This document shows positions 2 through 9,801 of a stretch of 49,976 bases of DNA, one piece after another. Each line of letters opens with the position of its first letter. Position 1 is the stretch's first letter. The DNA comes from Blastococcus sp. MG754426 (GTDB taxonomy: Bacteria > Actinomycetota > Actinomycetes > Mycobacteriales > Geodermatophilaceae), in the NCBI RefSeq assembly GCF_021699055.1, contig NZ_SSXC01000028.1:1-49976 (forward strand), in the 5' to 3' direction. Position numbers and translations under genes: made by a program. The notes under the pieces are model-generated. The model was not told the origin of the DNA. It ran no database searches and was given only the letters and a program-made list of their open reading frames with translations.

Positions 2-206
2 ACCCGCATCGTGCTGGGCCCCGAGGGTCAGCCCCTGGACGTGGGCCGCACCCCGGCCCCTCCGCAGGGGCCCGCCGCGAGCCTGCGAGTGGCGGGGGGC
101 GGAGGGGTCCTTTCATTCGCCGGTTGCGACGCCCCGGCCCACTGGTGCGACGTGCACCACCTGGTGCACTGGGCCGACGGCGGGGACACCTCCCTGGAGA
201 ACTCCG
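2..206 (+). pseudogene. HNH endonuclease (DUF222-type) gene, 5' side fragment interrupted by an integrative element
   Basis: The frame enters from the left edge and shows the end of the DUF222/HNH family core: LDVGRT, then FAGCDAPAHWCDVHH and HWADGGDTSLENS. These are the first half of the HNH zinc/nuclease site. Between LDVGRT and FAGC the reading is low-complexity and does not match the usual family stretch (roughly RRL...RRAL.VRDGGC), while the +1 frame there reads RPLRRG, so small compensating indels are likely and the gene was probably already damaged. After the Ser of LENS the homology stops at the AACTCCG core. The rest of the HNH motif (LLCERHH) lies about 4 kb away at 4203. The start codon is outside the window. 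Confidence 0.85.
200..206 (+). other. attL core (AACTCCG)
   Basis: This is the left copy of the 7-bp core shared by both element edges. To its left is HNH coding sequence. To its right the HNH homology ends abruptly and the cargo gene starts 48 bp later. Crossover inside this core is inferred from the frame restoration. Confidence 0.75.
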
Positions 207-253
207 CCCATCGGCAGGGCATCCCCCCGAGCGCATGTGTCAGGGTGTGAGTC

Positions 254-1714
254 ATGCGAGTTCTCTGCCTCGATTGCAGGCTTGGCATCGACGCCGATGA
301 CTACAGCTTCGGATCCACGATTTCTCTGTACGACTATGACGTCGTCATCTGGGACCCAGCGAACTCGCTAGAGGACTACACACTCCATTCCACGACCTAC
401 ATGGGGCTCCCTAGTCTCGCCACACACAAGTCAGCCGCGTTGCAACGAGACGTCGCGCGGCGACGGACAGAGTTCCTTGAATTCATAAATCTCGGGCGCA
501 CTTTGATCGTCTTCGTCCCTGGCGCAACCGAGGTCTATATTGACACTGGCGAGCGGCAGCATTCCGGAACTGGGCGAAACCGAGCTACGACGAAGATCGT
601 CAAAGAGTTCGACATCATGAAGGCCGTGCCAGCCAATATTGAGCTGAAGCCAGCGGCTGGATTTGAGATGGAAGCGGCTAGCGACCTGATCGGCCCGCTT
701 TTTCGGCGCACTCCTGGCGCTTGGCTCTACCGATCCGTCTTGGAGAAAGAAGACACTCTTCGGCCCCTGTTGCACGTTAAGGGGACTCGCAAGATTGTGT
801 CGGGAATGATCCGGCAAAAGAATAGTGGCGGCTTGTTACTGCTGCTCCCCGACCTAATCCTCGATGATTCTGACGAAGACGCTGGAGGAACGGAAGAGTC
901 TGCCGGGGAAAGCTCCTCTCTCAGGGACGCGTCTCTCGCACTCCTGGACTGGGTCAGGTCTTTAACCACCGAAGAGGAAGCGAAGGTTCCAGACTGGGCG
1001 AGCCGGTTCCTTTTTGCAAGCGAGCTCGAACGGACCGAACGCCGATCGAAACTGGAGGCGGAATTGTCTGAGACGCTGGCCCGCCTCGATTTGCTCAAGG
1101 CGGAGGAAGCCCAGGAAGCGCAGTGGAAGGTGCTTATCCATGGCGGCGGAGAGTCACTGGAGCGCCAGGTGGCCCGCGCATTCGAGGTGTTCGGCTTCAC
1201 TCTCGAAGACACGGTAAAGGGGCGAAGTGACCTCCGCGCCGTTCGAGGGGACGCGCGTGCGGTGGTCGAGGTCAAGGGCCTCGCCAAGAGTGCGGGCGAG
1301 AAGCATGCCGCCCAGCTTGAGAAGTGGGTGTCCGACGAGCTGGCCAACGGAAAACCGGCGAAGGGCATCCTCGTGGTCAACGCCTGGCGCGATATTCCAG
1401 TGGATGAGCGACGGGAGGACGTATTCCCGGACCAGATGCTGGCGTATTCCGCGCAGCGGAATCACTGTCTGGTGTCGGGACTGCAACTGCTCGCGATGGC
1501 GCGGGCTTGCATTGCTGACCCGTCTCGTGCGGACGAGTTGGCCAGCCTGCTACTGGAGACGACCGGGCGGATCTCCGGATGGGACGACGCTTCTCGTGTC
1601 TTCGAGGCGACAACCACGGACGAAGTAAGCGTGGGCAAGGAAGCCGATCTGCCCTCCGCTGCCGCCGGTCAGATCGAGGGTGAGTCAGCCGAGGAGGAAG
1701 ACCCGAAGGACTAG
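254..1714 (+). CDS. Uncharacterised protein: N-terminal alpha/beta domain, coiled coil, C-terminal PD-(D/E)xK nuclease-like domain
   Basis: 486 aa; I do not recognise the full-length family. Residues 1-200 look like an alpha/beta domain, with hydrophobic strands RVLCL, DVVIWD, TLIVFVP and GGLLLLLPDL. Residues 203-222 are an acidic linker and about 252-292 a charged coiled coil. Residues 296-400 carry a restriction-endonuclease-like pattern: E303 in a helix, D326 (SDL), E339-V-K341 (VVEVKG) and strand ILVVN at 372-376. The tail is acidic. Codon use is clearly more A/T-rich than in the neighbours (AAT, ATT, TTG, AAA are common), a sign of transfer. It is the main cargo of the 4-kb element, directly inside attL. 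By analogy with other island cargo it may cleave DNA, for example in defence or element maintenance; that role is inference. The ATG at 254 is the first start in the frame. Confidence 0.8.
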   Translation: MRVLCLDCRLGIDADDYSFGSTISLYDYDVVIWDPANSLEDYTLHSTTYMGLPSLATHKSAALQRDVARRRTEFLEFINLGRTLIVFVPGATEVYIDTGERQHSGTGRNRATTKIVKEFDIMKAVPANIELKPAAGFEMEAASDLIGPLFRRTPGAWLYRSVLEKEDTLRPLLHVKGTRKIVSGMIRQKNSGGLLLLLPDLILDDSDEDAGGTEESAGESSSLRDASLALLDWVRSLTTEEEAKVPDWASRFLFASELERTERRSKLEAELSETLARLDLLKAEEAQEAQWKVLIHGGGESLERQVARAFEVFGFTLEDTVKGRSDLRAVRGDARAVVEVKGLAKSAGEKHAAQLEKWVSDELANGKPAKGILVVNAWRDIPVDERREDVFPDQMLAYSAQRNHCLVSGLQLLAMARACIADPSRADELASLLLETTGRISGWDDASRVFEATTTDEVSVGKEADLPSAAAGQIEGESAEEEDPKD

Positions 1715-1757
1715 GCGATCCGCCAGGTGCCTGCGTCGACCGCTTGGCGGTGGGGGG

Positions 1758-1883
1758 CCGGGGACACTCTTCCCCCGGACCCCGCAACTGCCGGTTGCGG
1801 TCGTTCCACTTCGCTGACCGCCGCGCGAGGGCGGCGGTCAAGGGTGCCGGAGGCATCGCGTAGCGGCGCGGAGCGCCCTTGAC
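1758..1883. repeat. Cluster of GC-rich inverted repeats downstream of the nuclease-like gene
   Basis: The gap of about 300 bases between the nuclease-like gene and the HTH gene holds no convincing ORF but has four stems in a row: CCGGGG/CCCCGG (1758-1763 with 1773-1778), CCGCAAC/GTTGCGG (1782-1788 with 1794-1800), GACCGCCG/CGGCGGTC (1816-1823 with 1832-1839) and GTCAAGGG/CCCTTGAC (1837-1844 with 1876-1883). They could be terminators for the nuclease-like gene or part of a structured RNA. None is followed by a T run. Confidence 0.5.
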
Positions 1884-1993
1884 GGCCGCGCGCCAGAGTC
1901 GGGGACGGGGCAAGGCGCCGGAGGCGCCCCTTGGGAACGTTGCGAATAGGTACCCCACTGCAGGTCAGAGCCTTGTCCCATAACAACTTTGGT

Positions 1994-2020
1994 TTACGTG
2001 TGCGACAACGTAAGTTGTCG
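1994..2020. promoter_or_regulatory. Overlapping inverted repeats directly upstream of the HTH gene (putative operator)
   Basis: Two nested inverted repeats lie just before the GTG at 2024: TTACG (1994-1998) with CGTAA (2009-2013), and CGACAAC (2003-2009) with GTTGTCG (2014-2020; 4-nt spacer GTAA). A further ACAACTT occurs at 1983-1989. Their position suggests autoregulation by the small HTH protein; this is inferred. Confidence 0.5.
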
Positions 2021-2023
2021 GTC

Positions 2024-2344
2024 GTGAACCGCGCCCAAAGACGGGCCGCAGAGCGGCGCGCGACCAAGCACCGCCCGCGGCCGGGCCTGCTGATCGAATC
2101 GCCGCCACCGGCGGCGCAGCCGCCGAGTGCGGCGAGAGACGTGGCTCCCTCGGTCCCGCCAAGGGTCAACGAGGTCGACATGCTGGTGCGGCTACGCCGA
2201 GCGGCCCAGCGGCGTGCAGAGGCCGAGTCGGCACTGCTGGCCGAGATGCGACAAGCGCGCGCTGCCGGGTTGTCGTTCGCTCGGATCGGCGGCGCAGTGC
2301 AAGTCTCGGCGCAGGCCGTACGGCAACGGCTGCTCCGCGACTGA
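2024..2344 (+). CDS. Small helix-turn-helix protein of the element
   Basis: 106 aa from the GTG at 2024. I chose it over an upstream ATG at 1931 because the protein then begins with MNRAQRRAAERRA, a common start style in actinobacteria, and because the region before it is a palindromic operator. The N-terminal half is basic and proline/alanine-rich. The C-terminal half, from VNEVDMLVRLRRAAQRR, is a helix followed by an HTH-like segment (ARAAGLSFARIGGAVQVSAQAVRQRLLRD), similar in pattern to sigma-like or MerR/Xre recognition helices (LS..RIG.A..VS.QAV.QR). It probably binds DNA and may regulate itself, the cargo or the recombinase. The exact family is not recognised. Confidence 0.6.
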   Translation: MNRAQRRAAERRATKHRPRPGLLIESPPPAAQPPSAARDVAPSVPPRVNEVDMLVRLRRAAQRRAEAESALLAEMRQARAAGLSFARIGGAVQVSAQAVRQRLLRD

Positions 2345-2502
2345 CTGCGAACCTGTCGGACCCATCCGGCAGACTGCACGGGCGCGGCAGAGCCGTCGGG
2401 TCACCCACTCGGGCCCGGCGGCGGGTAGGACCCCAATCCCCGCGTGCGGTGCCTCTATCGAGTCGGTGGGCGGCAGGCTGCTGATGCCGGAGCAGTAACT
2501 GA

Positions 2503-2613
2503 GCCGAGGGCGTAGGCGCCGGGGTCGATCCCTACTGGATCGATGCCTCGGAGCGCGTCGTGCACTGCAACTGTTCTTTCACGTCCCCGACGGGGGCGAC
2601 GTGGCCAAGCTGA
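2503..2613 (+). pseudogene. Short residual reading frame before the small element ORF
   Basis: An open frame without ATG reads GVDPYWIDASERVVHCNCSF followed by TSPTGATWPS and a stop at 2611-2613. Its amino-acid pattern (PYWIDA, HCNC) looks protein-like rather than random. It overlaps the GTG of the next ORF at 2601 by 13 bases. It may be the tail of a lost gene or a tiny gene started at an unusual codon. Low certainty. Confidence 0.2.
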
Positions 2614-2837
2614 CTCCGGCCCAGGTGGCAGAGTGGCTGGCCGCCTCCTGCGCGGCCCAGGGCGTGCCGGTCCGGGTGACCGACCCGCAGGTACTGGCGA
2701 CGGTGGCGGCGCTGTTGCCGCCGCCGGAGGCGGGACCGGCGACCGCGCGGAGCGCGGGCGGGGATCGGCCCGGCGCGGCTCAGCCTCGCCAGACCGCGCG
2801 CACCCGCGATGGGCTCAGCGACCGGGCGCCGGGCTGA
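2601..2837 (+). CDS. Small hypothetical protein next to the serine recombinase
   Basis: 78 aa from a GTG. The first 40 residues (KLTPAQVAEWLAASCAAQG, then VPVRVTDPQVLATVAALL) have a clear amphipathic pattern, and I recall similar small proteins beside serine recombinases in actinobacterial elements (memory, not checked). The proline/arginine-rich C-terminus overlaps the 3' end of the convergent recombinase gene by 58 bases and is probably not structured. The function is unknown; an accessory or excision-related role is only a guess. The frame is open upstream to 2499, so the start could be earlier if a non-standard codon is used. Confidence 0.45.
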   Translation: MAKLTPAQVAEWLAASCAAQGVPVRVTDPQVLATVAALLPPPEAGPATARSAGGDRPGAAQPRQTARTRDGLSDRAPG

Positions 2838-4177
2838 CCGGGTTCGATCACCGCGTGGTCGAGTACCGCTGAGACGATCGCGGCCTGCCGCGACAGGCTC
2901 AGGTCGTCCCACTGGTCGCGCAGGTGACCGCCGTTGCCCGGCAGGCCGGTCAGGGCGTCGGTGCGGGTGAGGGCGGTGAGCTGGCGCTGCCGGTCGGCCA
3001 TGCGCCGCTCGATCGGCTCGCGGGCGGCCCGCCATTCGCGGGCACTGATCTCCTGCTTGCCGAACATCACCGCGAGCCCGTCGAGCTGGGCCTGGTCGCC
3101 GGCCAGCCCGTCGGAGAGCTCGGCGGCGGCGGTGTCCTCGCGCCGGCCGGCCAGCACGTCGGCCAGCTCGGGGCCGTCGAGGCGTTGTAGAACGGCCTCG
3201 ACCAGGAGCGCCTCGAGCGGTTCGGCGACGACGGTGAGCCGCCCGCAGCCGCCGTGGTCGGGGCCTTTGAGGCAGACGTAGCGGCGGGAGTTCTCGCGCG
3301 GGGAGGCGTAGAGCCTTCGGCCGCACTTGCCGCAGCGCAGCAGCCCGGACAGTACGTAGCGGCGCGGTGTGCGGCGTCCGCTGGCCACGCGCTCGGCCAT
3401 GCGGGCCAGCACCCGGTCCCGGTCGGCGGGGTCGATGATCGCGGGCCACTGCGCGGGGCCGACCACTTCGCCCAGGTGCTCGCGCAGTCCGGCGATGCGC
3501 CCGGAGCGCAGCAGCCCGCGCAGCGTCGGGGAACGCCACTCGCGGCCGGTCACCGTGGACACGCCCTGCTCGGTGAGCCAGGTGCACAGCGACCGCAGAC
3601 TTTCCCCGGCCAGGTAGCGGGCGACCAGATGCCGGATCACCTCGGCCTCGTCCGGGCGCACGGTCACCCGGTCGGCCTCGTAGCCGAAGGGTCGGACGCT
3701 GCCGCCGTGCGGGACACCGGAGGCCGCGTTCTGCTCCCACTTGCGTCGCATGCGGCGGCTCTTGGCCGCTGACTCGTTCGCTGCCACCGCCGCCATGATC
3801 CTTCCGATCAGCAGCCCGTCCCCGGTGCCCAGGTCCATGTCCCCGGACACGAACCGCACCTTGCGGACACCGGCGGCGTCCACCGTGGCGACGAACTGCT
3901 CCAACTCCACCGGACGGCGGGTCAGCCGGTCAACGTGGTAGCAGATCACCGCGTCACGTAGGCCGTCGGCCAGGTCGGTGAGCATCTGCTGATAGGCCGG
4001 GCGGCGCTTGCCCGAGTAGGCCGACAGGTCGTTGTCGACGTACTCCTGCGCGACCGGCCAGCCGACCTGCTCCGCCAGGCGGCGGCAGTCCTCCAACTGG
4101 CGGGTGACGCCCAGGGCGCGGCCCTCGGTGTCGCTGCTGATCCGCGCGTAGACCGCCGCCGCTCTGACCTCCGACAT
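2780..4177 (-). CDS. Large serine recombinase (integrase/resolvase family)
   Basis: 465 aa. Residues 5-150 are the resolvase catalytic domain with YARIS (nucleophile Ser14) and the DRLTRR arginines (about 84-88). Residues 160-265 match the recombinase domain, followed by a zinc ribbon with C282, C285, C302 and C311, and a coiled-coil stretch at about 350-405. This is the architecture of phage-type serine integrases that join attP and attB without host factors, though shorter than most phage ones. It starts 26 bp from the attR core and reads inwards, so it should mobilise this 4-kb element. The C-terminus overlaps the small ORF on the other strand. All key residues are present, so it is probably functional. 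Confidence 0.93.
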
Positions 4178-4183
4178 GGGGGC

Positions 4184-4189
4184 AGATTA
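4184..4189 (-). promoter_or_regulatory. -10 box of the recombinase gene (leaderless)
   Basis: TAATCT on the minus strand ends 6 nt before the ATG of the recombinase. The upstream promoter DNA runs through the attR core at 4203-4209, so part of the promoter is host DNA in the integrated state and element DNA in the excised circle. Confidence 0.5.
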
Positions 4190-4202
4190 GCGAAGCGTCG
4201 CA

Positions 4203-4209
4203 AACTCCG
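4203..4209 (+). other. attR core (AACTCCG)
   Basis: This is the right copy of the 7-bp core. The sequence to its right is the second half of the HNH gene, in frame with the first half. The sequence to its left is the recombinase promoter. Confidence 0.75.
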
Positions 4210-4310
4210 GGCTGCTGTGCGAACGGCACCACACGAAGGTGCACCACGGGTTCCGCGTCGAACGCCGACCCGACGGCCGATGGCGCACCTGGCGGCCCGA
4301 CGGCACCGAA
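4203..4310 (+). pseudogene. HNH endonuclease gene, 3' side fragment
   Basis: In frame from the attR core this reads [17 protein letters not shown], then [19 protein letters not shown], the standard end of DUF222/HNH proteins. LLCERHH completes the HNH site begun in the fragment at 2-206. The frame stays open to 4478 and overlaps the upp gene, so the original stop codon seems lost or lies where I cannot recognise it. Confidence 0.85.
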
Positions 4311-4359
4311 GGGGGCACCGGCTGCGAGGACGGCACCCGGTCCCGCCCGCACCGGCCGA

Positions 4360-4365
4360 TACGGT
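4360..4365 (+). promoter_or_regulatory. -10 box of upp (leaderless)
   Basis: TACGGT lies 7 nt before the GTG start, the spacing expected for a leaderless transcript. No Shine-Dalgarno sequence is visible. Confidence 0.5.
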
Positions 4366-4372
4366 GTCCGGC

Positions 4373-4996
4373 GTGCAGCTCACCGTCGTCGACCACCCGC
4401 TGGCCCGTGCCCGTCTGTCCCGGATGCGCGACGAGCGCACGGACAACGCCATGTTCCGCGCCGCGCTCCGCGAGCTGACGCAGATGCTGGTGTACGAGGC
4501 CACCCGCGACCTCGCGATCGCCGAGGAGCCGATCACCACCCCGGTCACCACGACCACGGGGTACCGGCTGGCCGCCCCGCCGCTCATCGTCCCGGTGCTG
4601 CGCGCCGGCCTCGGCATGGCCGACACCGCGCACGGGATGCTGCCGGAGTCGCAGATGGGTTTCGTCGGGCTCGCCCGCAACGAGGAGACCTTCCAGCCCG
4701 AGGCCTACATGGCCTCGCTGCCCGAGAGCCTGGTGGACCGCGACGTCTTCGTCCTCGACCCGATGCTCGCCACCGGCGGTTCGCTGGTGCACTGCTGCGA
4801 GCTGCTGACCGCCCGCGGCACGACGTCGATCACCGTGCTCTGCGCCCTGGCCGCCCCCGACGGGCTGCGCCGGCTCGAGGAGAGCGGCCTGCCGCTGCGG
4901 GTGTTCACCGCCAGCGTCGACGAGGGGCTCAACGACAAGGCCTACATCGTCCCGGGCCTCGGCGACGCCGGCGACCGCCAGTTCGGCGCGGTCTGA
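4373..4996 (+). CDS. upp: Uracil phosphoribosyltransferase
   Basis: 207 aa, the usual length. It converts uracil and PRPP to UMP in pyrimidine salvage. [18 protein letters not shown] at the start, [10 protein letters not shown] and the PRPP-binding stretch [11 protein letters not shown], with GLND near the end, are family hallmarks. The open frame extends upstream to 4217, but that part is HNH remnant. The GTG at 4373 gives the right protein start ([11 protein letters not shown]) and has a -10 box 7 nt upstream. The next gene starts 2 nt after its stop, so the two are co-transcribed. Confidence 0.96.
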
Positions 4997-4998
4997 CC

Positions 4999-5889
4999 GT
5001 GCGCTTCGGGCTGCTCGGCACCGGCCACTGGGCCAGGGCGGTGCACGCCACCGCGCTGGCCGCCCACCCGACGGCCGAGCTCGCCGGGGTGTGGGGCCGG
5101 GACGCCGGGCGCGCCGACGCGCTGGCGGCGGAGTTCGAGGTGCCCGGGTACGGCGACGTCGACGCGCTGCTGGCCGACGTGGACGCCGTCGCCATCGCGC
5201 TGCCCCCGCACGTGCAGGCGCCGCTCGCCGTGCGCGCGGCCGAGGCGGGCAAGCACCTGCTCCTGGAGAAGCCGATCGCGCTGGACGTCGCCGCGGCCGA
5301 CCGGGTGGTCGACGCGGTGCGGGCGGCCGGCGTCGCCTCGGTCGTCTTCTTCACCTTCCGCTTCCAGACGGCGACCTCCACCTGGCTGACGCAGGCCGCG
5401 CGCACCCGTCTCGCCGGGGGAGCGGGCTCCTGGCTCTCCTCGCTCGCCGGCACCCCCTTCGCCGCCTCGCCCTGGCGCCAGGAGCACGGCGCGCTGTGGG
5501 ACATCGGCCCGCACGCGCTGTCGGTGCTGGTGCCGGCACTCGGGCCGGTCGTCGCCGTGCAGGCCGGGGCCGGGCTGCTCGACACCGTCCACCTGGTGCT
5601 CACCCACGAGTCGGGGGCGGCCTCGACCGTGACGCTGTCGCACACGGTGGCGCCCATGTCGGCCGGCATCGAGTTCTACGTGCACGGCGACGCCGGCCGG
5701 CTGGTCCTGCTGCCCGACGTCGAGGCCCCGGTCGAGGCGTTCGGCGTGGCCGTCGACGAGCTGACGTCGGCGGCCGTCGCCGGGGGCACCCACCCCTGCG
5801 ACGTGGGCTTCGGCCGCGACGTCGTCGCCGTCCTCGCCACGGCCGCCCGGGCGCTCGACTCCGGCTGCCGGGAACCCGTCGGGGCGTGA
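4999..5889 (+). CDS. Gfo/Idh/MocA-family NAD(P)-dependent oxidoreductase
   Basis: 296 aa. The N-terminal Rossmann domain starts directly with RFGLLGTGHWAR (G-x-G-x-x) and includes EAGKHLLLEKPIALD, the family EKP motif whose lysine is catalytic. The C-terminal half is the alpha/beta substrate domain (WDIGPHALSVL). Members oxidise or reduce sugars and related compounds; the substrate cannot be told from sequence. GTG start 2 nt after upp. Confidence 0.88.
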   Translation: MRFGLLGTGHWARAVHATALAAHPTAELAGVWGRDAGRADALAAEFEVPGYGDVDALLADVDAVAIALPPHVQAPLAVRAAEAGKHLLLEKPIALDVAAADRVVDAVRAAGVASVVFFTFRFQTATSTWLTQAARTRLAGGAGSWLSSLAGTPFAASPWRQEHGALWDIGPHALSVLVPALGPVVAVQAGAGLLDTVHLVLTHESGAASTVTLSHTVAPMSAGIEFYVHGDAGRLVLLPDVEAPVEAFGVAVDELTSAAVAGGTHPCDVGFGRDVVAVLATAARALDSGCREPVGA

Positions 5890-5899
5890 CGGCTCTCCC

Positions 5900-6466
5900 T
5901 CAGGGGCGGGCCACCCGGTGGCGGAGCATGACGGTCCCGTTGCCGAACCGGCGGGTCTCCAGCAGTTCCAGCCGGGTGAGGTCGTCCGCGTCCGCGAAGA
6001 GCCGCCGGCCGCGGCCGAGCAGCACGGGCGCCACGTAGAGCCGGTACTCGTCCACGAGGTCCAGCCGGCGGAAGGTCGCGGTCAGGTCCGGGCCGCCGAG
6101 CACCATGTCGCCGCCGGGGAGCTGCTGGAGCGCCCGGATCTCGTCCGGGTCGACCGCGTGGCGGACCTCGGTGGCCCACGGCACCTCGTCGCGGGTGCGG
6201 GAGAACACGATCTTCGGCATGGCCCGCCAGATGCCGGCGAACTCCTTCTCCGGGGCGGAGGCGGCCGGGTCCTCGTCGGCCGTCGGCCAGTACGCGGCCA
6301 TCAGCTCCTGGGTGACCCGGCCCTCGAGGAAGGCGCTCGCCGCCGCCAGCTGGGCGTTCATCCAGCTGTGCAGCTCCTCGTCGACGAGGTGCCAGCTGAT
6401 GTCGTGGTCGGGGCCCTCGAAGAACCCGTCGAGGGACACCGACAGGTGGACGACGATCTTCCGCAT
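5900..6466 (-). CDS. Dihydrofolate reductase family protein (RibD C-terminal domain-like)
   Basis: 188 aa. MRKIVVHLSVSLDGFFEGPDHD is the typical start, and GGPDLTATFRRLDLVDEYRLYVAPVLLGRGRRLF is the typical end of stand-alone RibD-C/DHFR-like proteins, which are NADPH-dependent reductases often of unknown substrate. The ATG at 6466 has a strong GGAGG ribosome site 5 nt upstream; the frame extends further but without family similarity. It converges on the oxidoreductase gene with a 10-bp gap. It is not a true FolA. Confidence 0.88.
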   Translation of the reverse strand: MRKIVVHLSVSLDGFFEGPDHDISWHLVDEELHSWMNAQLAAASAFLEGRVTQELMAAYWPTADEDPAASAPEKEFAGIWRAMPKIVFSRTRDEVPWATEVRHAVDPDEIRALQQLPGGDMVLGGPDLTATFRRLDLVDEYRLYVAPVLLGRGRRLFADADDLTRLELLETRRFGNGTVMLRHRVARP

Positions 6467-8995: not shown

Positions 8996-9801
8996 GGGAG
9001 GCGCTCGATCAGCTGCACCAGCAGGGCCCCCAGCCGCCCGGCGGCCGCCTTGCCCGCCGCCAGCACCTCCTCGTGGTCCAGCGCCTCCCCGGTGATCCCG
9101 GCCGCGGCGTTGGTGACCATCGACAGGCCGAAGACCTCCGCGCCGGCGGCCCGCGCGGCGATCGCCTCCAGCGCGGTGGACATGCCGACCAGGTCGGCGC
9201 CGAGCGTCCGCAGCATGCGGATCTCCGCCGGCGTCTCGAAGTGCGGGCCGGGGAGCTGGGCGTACACCCCCTCGGCCAGCGACGGGTCGAGCTCCCGGGC
9301 GATCGCGCGCAACCGCGAGGAGTAGAGGTCGGTGAGGTCGACGAAGTTCGCGCCCACGAGCGGCGAGCGCGCGGTGAGGTTCAAGTGGTCGGAGATCACC
9401 ACGGCCTGGCCCACCCGGTGCTCGGGGGCCAGCCCGCCGGCGGCGTTGGTCAGCACGACGGTCCGCACGCCCGCGGCGACCGCCGTGCGGATGCCGTGGA
9501 CCACGGGCTCCACGCCGCGCCCCTCGTAGTAGTGGGTCCGGCCGAGGAACAGCAGCACCTTGCGCTCGCCCACCCGCACCGAGCGGATCTCGCCGCCGTG
9601 CCCGAGGACGGTGGGGGCGGCGAAGCCGGGCAGGTCGCCGATCGCCACCGATCCCGCGGTCTCGCCGAACGCGTCGGCCGCGGGCGCCCAGCCCGAGCCC
9701 ATGACGACGGCGACGTCGTGCGGACCGCCGAGCGCGGTGGTCAGGGCGTCGGCGGCCTGCGCGGCCAGGGCGGTGGGGTCGGTCCCGGGGAGCTCGCTCA
9801 C
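8992..9801 (-). CDS. punA: Purine nucleoside phosphorylase (trimeric class)
   Basis: 269 aa. It cleaves (deoxy)inosine or guanosine with phosphate to the base and (deoxy)ribose 1-phosphate. VVMGSGW (phosphate loop), [26 protein letters not shown] and GMSTALEA are signatures of the inosine-guanosine type. GTG start in MSELPGTDP. It is divergent from the carboxylate-amine ligase gene and the first gene of the minus-strand unit. Confidence 0.94.

What the first reader, a model, noticed from the sequence alone, without database searches (positions are those of the whole stretch)
200..4209. A 4.0-kb serine-recombinase island with exact edges in an HNH gene
Both edges show AACTCCG. Fusing the outer sides recreates ...[22 protein letters not shown], a complete HNH site in one frame. 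So the exact insertion point, the empty site and the circular attP can all be read from this window. DUF222/HNH genes are multicopy in these genomes, so they could be a recurring safe harbour for such islands.
Basis: partly seen in the sequence, partly recalled or inferred. Interest (0 to 1): 0.85.

Follow-up and report, generated by a model that had tools for sequence, protein, structure and literature searches.

The report
Serine-recombinase island in an HNH gene
A 4-kb mobile island with a DNA-cutting-enzyme-like gene has spliced itself, at one conserved codon, into a repeated bacterial HNH gene, and related islands with different cargo, some of it of known antiviral kinds, sit at the same codon in other bacteria.

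Summary
AACTCCG lies at 200-206 and 4203-4209; the joined flanks give one HNH frame. The own genome has two uninterrupted paralogues (93-95%), and relatives have open HNH genes before upp. The insert carries a large serine recombinase (LSR), a conserved small ORF, an HTH-like ORF and a PD-(D/E)XK nuclease-like gene found in 1 of 112 family genomes.

The outer side of the LSR start shows the same HNH codon region in 20 of 23 loci at 56% identity or more and in 13 of 18 further mycobacterium-like loci. Eleven islands were delimited at both ends: AA of the Asn codon is the only stretch shared by both edges in all, and attP symmetry peaks there. Cargo differs between islands and includes Thoeris, SIR2-like and Fic proteins.

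Precedent: phiRv1 uses the DUF222/HNH repeat REP13E12 in M. tuberculosis, so this is a new variant of a known kind. Excision, the small ORF's role and defence by the nuclease-like cargo are inferred.

The parts
2..202 (+). Left half of the host DUF222/HNH gene (frame ...DVHHLVHWADGGDTSLEN), cut by the contig start; its frame stops 15 codons into the island
   Evidence: (HNH E 0.0067, below cut-off); paralogue C13 matches DUF222
200..206 (+). attL core AACTCCG; likely crossover dinucleotide AA at 200-201 (first two bases of the HNH Asn codon)
254..1714 (+). Cargo ORF, 486 aa: PD-(D/E)XK nuclease-like C-terminal domain (D326, E339 and K341 invariant in a 34-row alignment); no Pfam or PADLOC family
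   Evidence: 1 of 112 family genomes
1931..2344 (+). ORF of 137 aa with weak helix-turn-helix similarity (PF13404, E 0.0049, below cut-off); no match in the 27 other loci searched
2601..2837 (+). Small ORF of 78 aa, convergent with and overlapping the recombinase 3' end; conserved stretch around S-C-x-x-Q-G-V-P-V-x-V-T-D-P; candidate recombination directionality factor (inferred)
2780..4177 (-). Large serine recombinase, 465 aa (Resolvase, Recombinase, zinc beta ribbon); start codon 25 bp inside the right edge
4150..4204 (+). Right attP arm; holds TTAGCGA, conserved in most of the 11 islands as (T)TAGCGA; AA at 4203-4204
4203..4209 (+). attR core AACTCCG
4203..4478 (+). Right half of the host HNH gene ([17 protein letters not shown]...)
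4217..4996 (+). upp (uracil phosphoribosyltransferase) ORF as listed; its true start is probably later

Best explanation
This is a small integrative island moved by its own large serine recombinase. On a circular form, the recombinase recognises attP (island ends joined, dyad centred on AA). It recombines attP with attB, the DNA that encodes the conserved Asn region of the HNH motif in a DUF222/HNH gene, giving attL and attR around AA and splitting the HNH gene in front of upp. Because these genes are multicopy and the motif is constrained at the protein level, the island readily finds a target, and losing one copy is probably tolerated. The island belongs to a family with a fixed right-end backbone (recombinase plus small ORF, often with an HUH-type Rep gene) and an exchangeable cargo slot at the left. 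Here the slot holds a PD-(D/E)XK nuclease-like gene, perhaps an antiphage gene. Shown by sequence: edges, empty sites, the target codon, recurrence, the backbone, variable cargo. Inferred: circularisation and excision, the small ORF as directionality factor, tolerance by the host, defence by the cargo.
For: Joined frame, uninterrupted paralogues and relatives. LSR domains. 20 of 23 distinct LSR loci at 56% identity or more (window included) abut the HNH codon region, 14 forward and 6 reversed, and 13 of 18 further mycobacterium-like loci do so, reversed (8 by motif, 5 by eye); the forward and reverse motifs occur in 43 and 78 of 20,000 random 160-bp windows. 11 islands delimited on both sides, all joined frames open. 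AA is present at both edges in 11 of 11; mean attP dyad score peaks there, 10.8 of 22 pairs, next 8.9, other shifts 3.8-7.3. A clade of 22 recombinases, support 100/99, holds 20 HNH-inserted rows. Small ORF matched in 27 of 28 loci, Rep in 17 of 28. 16 cargo proteins of 10 islands do not match each other at E 0.01. Nuclease fold of the window cargo.
Against: No read data, so no excised circle was seen. The window island lacks the Rep gene of most relatives and may be stuck. Three of the 23 loci do not show the codon clearly: L074 only Asn-Leu, L070 a degraded right half, L084 beside the 3' end of an HNH gene. Five of the 18 further loci show no HNH half (L154, L155, L156, L161, L162), and 7 more listed hits at 56% or more were not examined. 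L083, counted as reversed, is degraded. The attB dyad averaged over 11 islands is best at shift +1, not 0 (9.1 against 7.9). No Foldseek match of the cargo reaches E 0.001, and PADLOC finds nothing in it.
Confidence: 0.9

Rival explanations
1. A fossil: the island was inserted once by the recombinase and is now an immobile remnant.
For: No Rep gene, unlike 17 of 28 related loci; no relative with the same cargo in 112 family genomes.
Against: The recombinase is full length with all three domains, the small ORF is open, and both edges keep the core and a readable HNH frame.
Confidence: 0.25
2. A phage-derived element like phiRv1 (prophage or satellite) that lost its virion genes.
For: phiRv1 has a serine recombinase and sits in REP13E12 (PMC9317374, passage), a DUF222/HNH repeat (PMC10589994, passage).
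Against: No virion domain in the window ORFs or the cargo ORFs that were scanned; the mycobacterium-like elements were not scanned. The top-ranked phage match of 600 records is 35.8% identical, and all 600 are below 60%. Relatives carry plasmid-type Rep genes.
Confidence: 0.1
3. The HNH product itself acts as a homing nuclease and draws insertions into its own gene; the recombinase is a passenger.
For: Another HNH copy of the genome (C209) has an IS-like insert within about 10 bp of the same codon.
Against: In the forward group the recombinase start lies 40-44 bp from the conserved Cys of the HNH right half, and attP is a dyad centred on the join. Related recombinases abut a different gene (CpaF-like Walker A) in similar geometry.
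Confidence: 0.03
4. Assembly artefact: repeated HNH genes were wrongly joined around a separate replicon.
For: Contigs end inside HNH copies; C145 starts 199 bp before the island.
Against: Ten other islands, including one on a 1.06-Mb contig (L062, G089) and two in single-contig genomes (L067 in G021, L131 in G619), have the same anatomy.
Confidence: 0.03

Closest known systems
phiRv1, prophage-like element of Mycobacterium tuberculosis (integrase Rv1586c, target REP13E12)
   Same: Serine recombinase; target is a multicopy DUF222/HNH gene family (PMC9317374 and PMC10589994, passages; the 2002 and 2005 Bibb papers were seen only in reference lists).
   Different: 9.3 kb and prophage-like, core GGTTGGCCGTGG (PMC3986857, table passage). 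The window island has no phage domain in the ORFs scanned and core AACTCCG/AA. Whether phiRv1 uses the same codon is untested: a pattern built on that guess gave 0 of 198 genomes.
AICEs (actinomycete integrative and conjugative elements), the minority with serine recombinases
   Same: Integrase plus Rep module in relatives; PMC3218068 (passages) counts 19 of 144 AICEs with serine recombinases, some in protein genes. The order rep - small gene - int resembles pSAM2 (recalled).
   Different: No FtsK-type transfer domain in the window ORFs scanned; 3-5 kb, smaller than known AICEs (recalled).
Integrative and mobilizable elements (IMEs) with serine recombinases
   Same: Serine recombinase inside a dispensable gene; rolling-circle Rep-like proteins as possible relaxases (PMC5704250, passages).
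   Different: The window island has no Rep or relaxase match; no oriT was sought.
Large serine recombinase target survey (PMC10083194, 2022)
   Same: Site-specific LSRs that hit one gene family, for example a magnesium chelatase gene (12.4% of site-specific integrases; passages).
   Different: HNH does not occur in the main text held.
Thoeris defence system
   Same: A relative of the island (L066) carries ThsB, ThsA (macro) and ThsC within 1.8 kb.
   Different: The window cargo is a different, uncharacterised nuclease-like gene.

Membership tests
Element integrated by a large serine recombinase | Recombinase with Resolvase, Recombinase and zinc-ribbon domains near one end | tested here: met
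   start codon 25 bp inside the right edge
Element integrated by a large serine recombinase | Short identical core at both ends and dyad-symmetric attP about a central dinucleotide | tested here: met
Element integrated by a large serine recombinase | Empty attB in related genomes or paralogues | tested here: met
Element integrated by a large serine recombinase | Excision to a circle | not testable with these tools
   no reads available
phiRv1-like element | attB in a DUF222/HNH (REP13E12-type) gene | tested here: met
   host gene family: paralogue C13 and left halves of relatives; phiRv1 side from papers
phiRv1-like element | Phage structural genes | tested here: not met
   no virion domain in the window ORFs scanned
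phiRv1-like element | Same core sequence and codon | tested here: inconclusive
   published core differs; pattern test 0 of 198 genomes
AICE | FtsK/TraB-type transfer protein and Rep | tested here: not met
   neither found in the window island
IME | Own relaxase or oriT | tested here: inconclusive
   no Rep or relaxase match in the window island; oriT not sought
Mobile defence island | Cargo belongs to a known defence family | tested here: inconclusive
   window cargo: no PADLOC hit, nuclease fold only; relatives: Thoeris, SIR2-like, Fic
Insertion sequence | Transposase | tested here: not met
   the recombinase is an LSR and no transposase domain was found in the ORFs scanned; terminal inverted repeats were not searched for

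The most novel reading that the evidence does not exclude
An undescribed family of minimal integrative elements (mostly 3-5 kb) in Actinomycetota consists of a large serine recombinase, a conserved small directionality factor and usually an HUH-type Rep. Each element ferries one exchangeable defence module into DUF222/HNH genes at a single codon, so the multicopy HNH genes act as a genome-wide rack for swapping immune systems, and reading the cargo at this codon would find new defence genes, including the nuclease-like gene of the window.
Probability: 0.45. Interest if true: 0.78.

Novelty: new variant of a known kind. Interest (0 to 1): 0.62.

Why it matters
It gives sequence-exact att sites for a clade of serine recombinases that reads DNA coding for one protein motif, hence candidate integration tools with predictable targets. 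It also points to a simple rule for finding small mobile cargo, part of it defence: look between the two halves of a split HNH gene. Two recombinase islands at the same HNH codon in one genome (this one and C218) make competition for multicopy attB sites testable.

Tried and rejected
Rejected: the 7-bp repeat as proof by itself (10 copies in the window over both strands). Rejected: an insertion sequence (the recombinase is an LSR). Rejected: a tRNA target (no tRNA gene in the window).

Led nowhere: Pfam and PADLOC on the cargo ORF; sequence search of solved structures for the cargo; the single genome-contig scan, whose one close relative has the length and match positions of G060:C410; promoter scan; the guess that the phiRv1 core falls on the same codon (0 of 198 genomes); paper searches for HNH/DUF222 or REP13E12 with serine recombinases, or for small defence-carrying serine-recombinase elements, where no paper describing this family came up in the listings. 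The att-site papers PMC4015280 and PMC4748531 (passages) gave no phiRv1 site letters.

Labels and rows: the automatic motif class put L089 (by eye CpaF-like), L092, L113, L114 and L115 (by eye ComM/magnesium-chelatase-like) with reversed HNH; these were relabelled by eye, and L081 and L083 added as reversed HNH. L050 and L053 are counted once. From the tree, L050, L093, L106 and rows covering under 330 residues of the query were dropped. The first all-against-all of island ORFs missed the real L061 cargo and showed one 50-residue match between two small ORFs antisense or next to Rep genes (L065, L131); it was redone with 16 hand-picked cargo ORFs from 10 islands (none for L129).
Full report
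1. The observation. AACTCCG is at 200-206 and 4203-4209. Joining base 206 to base 4210 gives one frame reading TRIVLGPEGQPLDV...[39 protein letters not shown]. As a query, this joined sequence aligns unbroken over bases 1-306 to two further HNH genes of the same genome, C58 (95%) and C13 (93%), and both are open across the site. The window is contig C145 from its first base, so only 199 bp lie left of the island. In relatives an HNH gene stands in front of upp: in G003 one match runs through query bases 1-456, HNH and upp matches lie within 140 bp of each other in G002, G011, G013, G018 and G021, and 0.7 kb apart in G022 (a capped listing). Frames were read for G013, G021 (533 aa), G022 (529 aa) and G003, and all four are open through the site. 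The cargo gene occurs in 1 of 112 family genomes, and the best recombinase in the 22 other genus genomes is 53% identical. So the 4 kb is a strain-specific insert.

2. Anatomy. From left to right: a 486-aa cargo ORF (254-1714, +, G+C 0.600), a 137-aa ORF with weak HTH similarity (1931-2344, +), a 78-aa small ORF (2601-2837, +), and a 465-aa large serine recombinase (2780-4177, -) with Resolvase, Recombinase and zinc-ribbon domains. The cargo has no Pfam or PADLOC family. Its AlphaFold2 model (34 sequences, mean pLDDT 88.7, pTM 0.53) matches PD-(D/E)XK nucleases in one domain: EndoMS with probability up to 1.00, Holliday-junction resolvases up to 0.98, Cap4 up to 0.60. No E-value is below 0.001. 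D326, E339 and K341 are invariant in the 34-row alignment. A source names one homologue, P0050, a PD-(D/E)XK nuclease family protein.

3. The same codon again and again. I collected recombinase relatives from 23 genus, 112 family, 397 order, 394 class and 396 phylum genomes (the samples overlap, and loci are capped at 30 per search), and read the DNA just outside the recombinase start. Of 23 distinct loci at 56% identity or more, the window included, 14 show the right half of an HNH gene by motif, and 6 the left half in the opposite orientation, 4 by motif and 2 by eye, one of these (L083) degraded. The other three are L070 (degraded right half), L074 (only Asn-Leu) and L084 (recombinase beside the 3' end of an HNH gene). 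A further search of 198 genomes of the genus of G304 (unnamed; Mycobacterium by inference) gave 18 more loci at 57-60%: 13 show a reversed HNH left half, 8 by motif and 5 by eye, and 5 do not. Seven more hits at 56% or more had no locus and were not examined. In 20,000 random 160-bp windows the forward motif came up 43 times and the reverse motif 78 times. In a tree of 67 recombinases from the first set, 22 rows form a clade with support 100/99: 14 forward (with the degraded L059 and L070), 6 reversed, and L074 and L084. L087, also HNH-inserted, falls outside with weak support, beside rows inserted in the Walker A motif of a CpaF/TadA-like ATPase gene (these target names are by eye).

4. Exact crossover. 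Eleven islands could be delimited at both HNH halves: 4.0 kb (window), 3.3, 3.6, 4.8, 5.4, 4.7, 5.1, 3.1, 8.6, 4.3 and 4.9 kb. One of them (5.4 kb, contig C218) is a second island of this same genome with a 58% identical recombinase. All 11 joined frames are open. Of nine left halves scanned, seven match DUF222 over the cut-off and two (L065, L131) match no family. The counted identical core runs from 3 to 8 bp; in L129 and L130 the third base of the codon differs (AAC, AAT). AA, the first two bases of the Asn codon, is at both edges in 11 of 11 and is the only stretch common to all. Mean attP dyad symmetry peaks at AA (10.8 of 22 pairs; next 8.9; other shifts 3.8-7.3). The mean over attB and attP also peaks there (9.4, next 7.7); attB alone peaks one base later (9.1 against 7.9). 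For the window itself both sites peak at AA among the ten shifts tried (13 and 10 of 24). AA is therefore the likely central dinucleotide.

5. A backbone with exchangeable cargo. Among 28 oriented loci, three of which supplied the queries, the small ORF is matched in 27 (all but L141), in 25 of them within about 600 bp of the recombinase 3' end. A Rep gene is matched in 17 of 28. Four Reps were scanned (L062, L065, L129, L132), and all match REP_ORF2-G2P over the Pfam cut-off, L062 also RepSA. The window, L060 and L061 have no Rep match. L060 and L061 share an HTH-like ORF (59%), but the window ORF in that place has no detected similarity to it. Sixteen cargo proteins of 10 islands do not match each other at E 0.01. 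L066 carries ThsB, ThsA and ThsC (PADLOC E 3.6e-91, 1e-131, 2.3e-70); L132 a SIR2-like protein; L062 a Fic protein (SoFic E 3.9e-22); L067 a NOV_C protein; L065 an AAA protein below cut-off; L130 a PIN/RHH pair and an RHS-repeat protein; L060, L061 and L131 no known family; in L129 no clear cargo ORF was called. So 3 of 11 have clear defence-type cargo, and the window is a plausible fourth. Among loci without a delimited left edge, L064 has a DndB-like, L133 a PIN_8 and L142 a DUF4062 protein; cargo ORFs of L063, L141 and L143 match no Pfam family.

6. How it most likely works. The recombinase pairs attP with the HNH motif DNA, cuts at AA and exchanges strands, splitting the gene. The reverse reaction in other serine integrase systems needs a directionality factor (PMC3783163, passages), and the small ORF is the best candidate here because it is the most constant partner. 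This is inference: its model has two helices with mean pLDDT 71.5, and the names given for its 20 database homologues, where there is one, say only hypothetical protein. The Rep of the relatives could copy the excised circle or act as a relaxase (inference; PMC5704250, passages, describes such use in IMEs).

7. Known relatives. phiRv1 of M. tuberculosis has a serine recombinase and lies in REP13E12 (PMC9317374, passage), a DUF222/HNH repeat (PMC10589994, passage), so the target gene family has a precedent. Its core differs (PMC3986857, table passage), my test of a shared codon was negative (0 of 198 genomes), and I could not place its integrase in the tree. AICEs with serine recombinases (PMC3218068, passages) and IMEs (PMC5704250, passages) share modules but not all defining features. 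A large LSR survey (PMC10083194, passages) stresses a magnesium chelatase gene, does not name HNH in its main text, and found no enrichment of target sites in or near defence genes, which is a statement about targets, not cargo. PMC11706625 (passages) links another nuclease family to AICEs and defence genes, with tyrosine integrases. No paper describing this element family was seen in the search listings, which cover open-licence PMC papers only.

8. Verdict. New here: the codon-level target, the AA centre, both orientations, the constant backbone and the changing cargo. Excision and function remain to be shown.

Noticed in passing
L031 (G000:C209:9000-17000), about 3036-4475: Another DUF222/HNH gene of the same genome is split by an IS-like element with two transposase-like ORFs (IS3-type by eye, not scanned), within about 10 bp of the codon used by the islands.
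   Followed up: partly
L031 4476-4574 against window 4211-4309: 99 bp of the right HNH part are 100% identical between C209 and the window although the left parts are 83% identical, which suggests gene conversion between HNH paralogues.
   Followed up: no
L065 (G000:C218), about 943-6308: A second island of the same family in the same genome, 5.4 kb, with a Rep gene and an 815-aa AAA protein, in an HNH gene without a detectable DUF222 match.
   Followed up: yes
L075, L082, L088, L089: Related recombinases abut the Walker A codons (KTTLLNCL-type) of a CpaF/TadA-like ATPase gene; L092, L113, L114 and L115 abut a ComM/magnesium-chelatase-like gene (names by eye).
   Followed up: partly
L071-L073, L080, L081, L083 and 13 loci among L147-L164: Mycobacterium-like genomes carry the HNH insertion in opposite orientation; three such loci in one genome (G304).
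   Followed up: partly
L034 (G019:C152) near 9068: An HNH gene whose reading follows the HNH motif to ...NSGLL and then changes to unrelated sequence, a breakpoint 12 bp after the Asn codon.
   Followed up: no
G000 contigs C13, C58, C145; G019 contigs C153, C232: Contigs of draft assemblies end inside HNH copies, so split HNH genes will be undercounted in short-read assemblies.
   Followed up: no
window 4239-4478: The right HNH frame runs on past the usual gene end into upp, so the HNH gene may have lost its own stop codon apart from the island.
   Followed up: no
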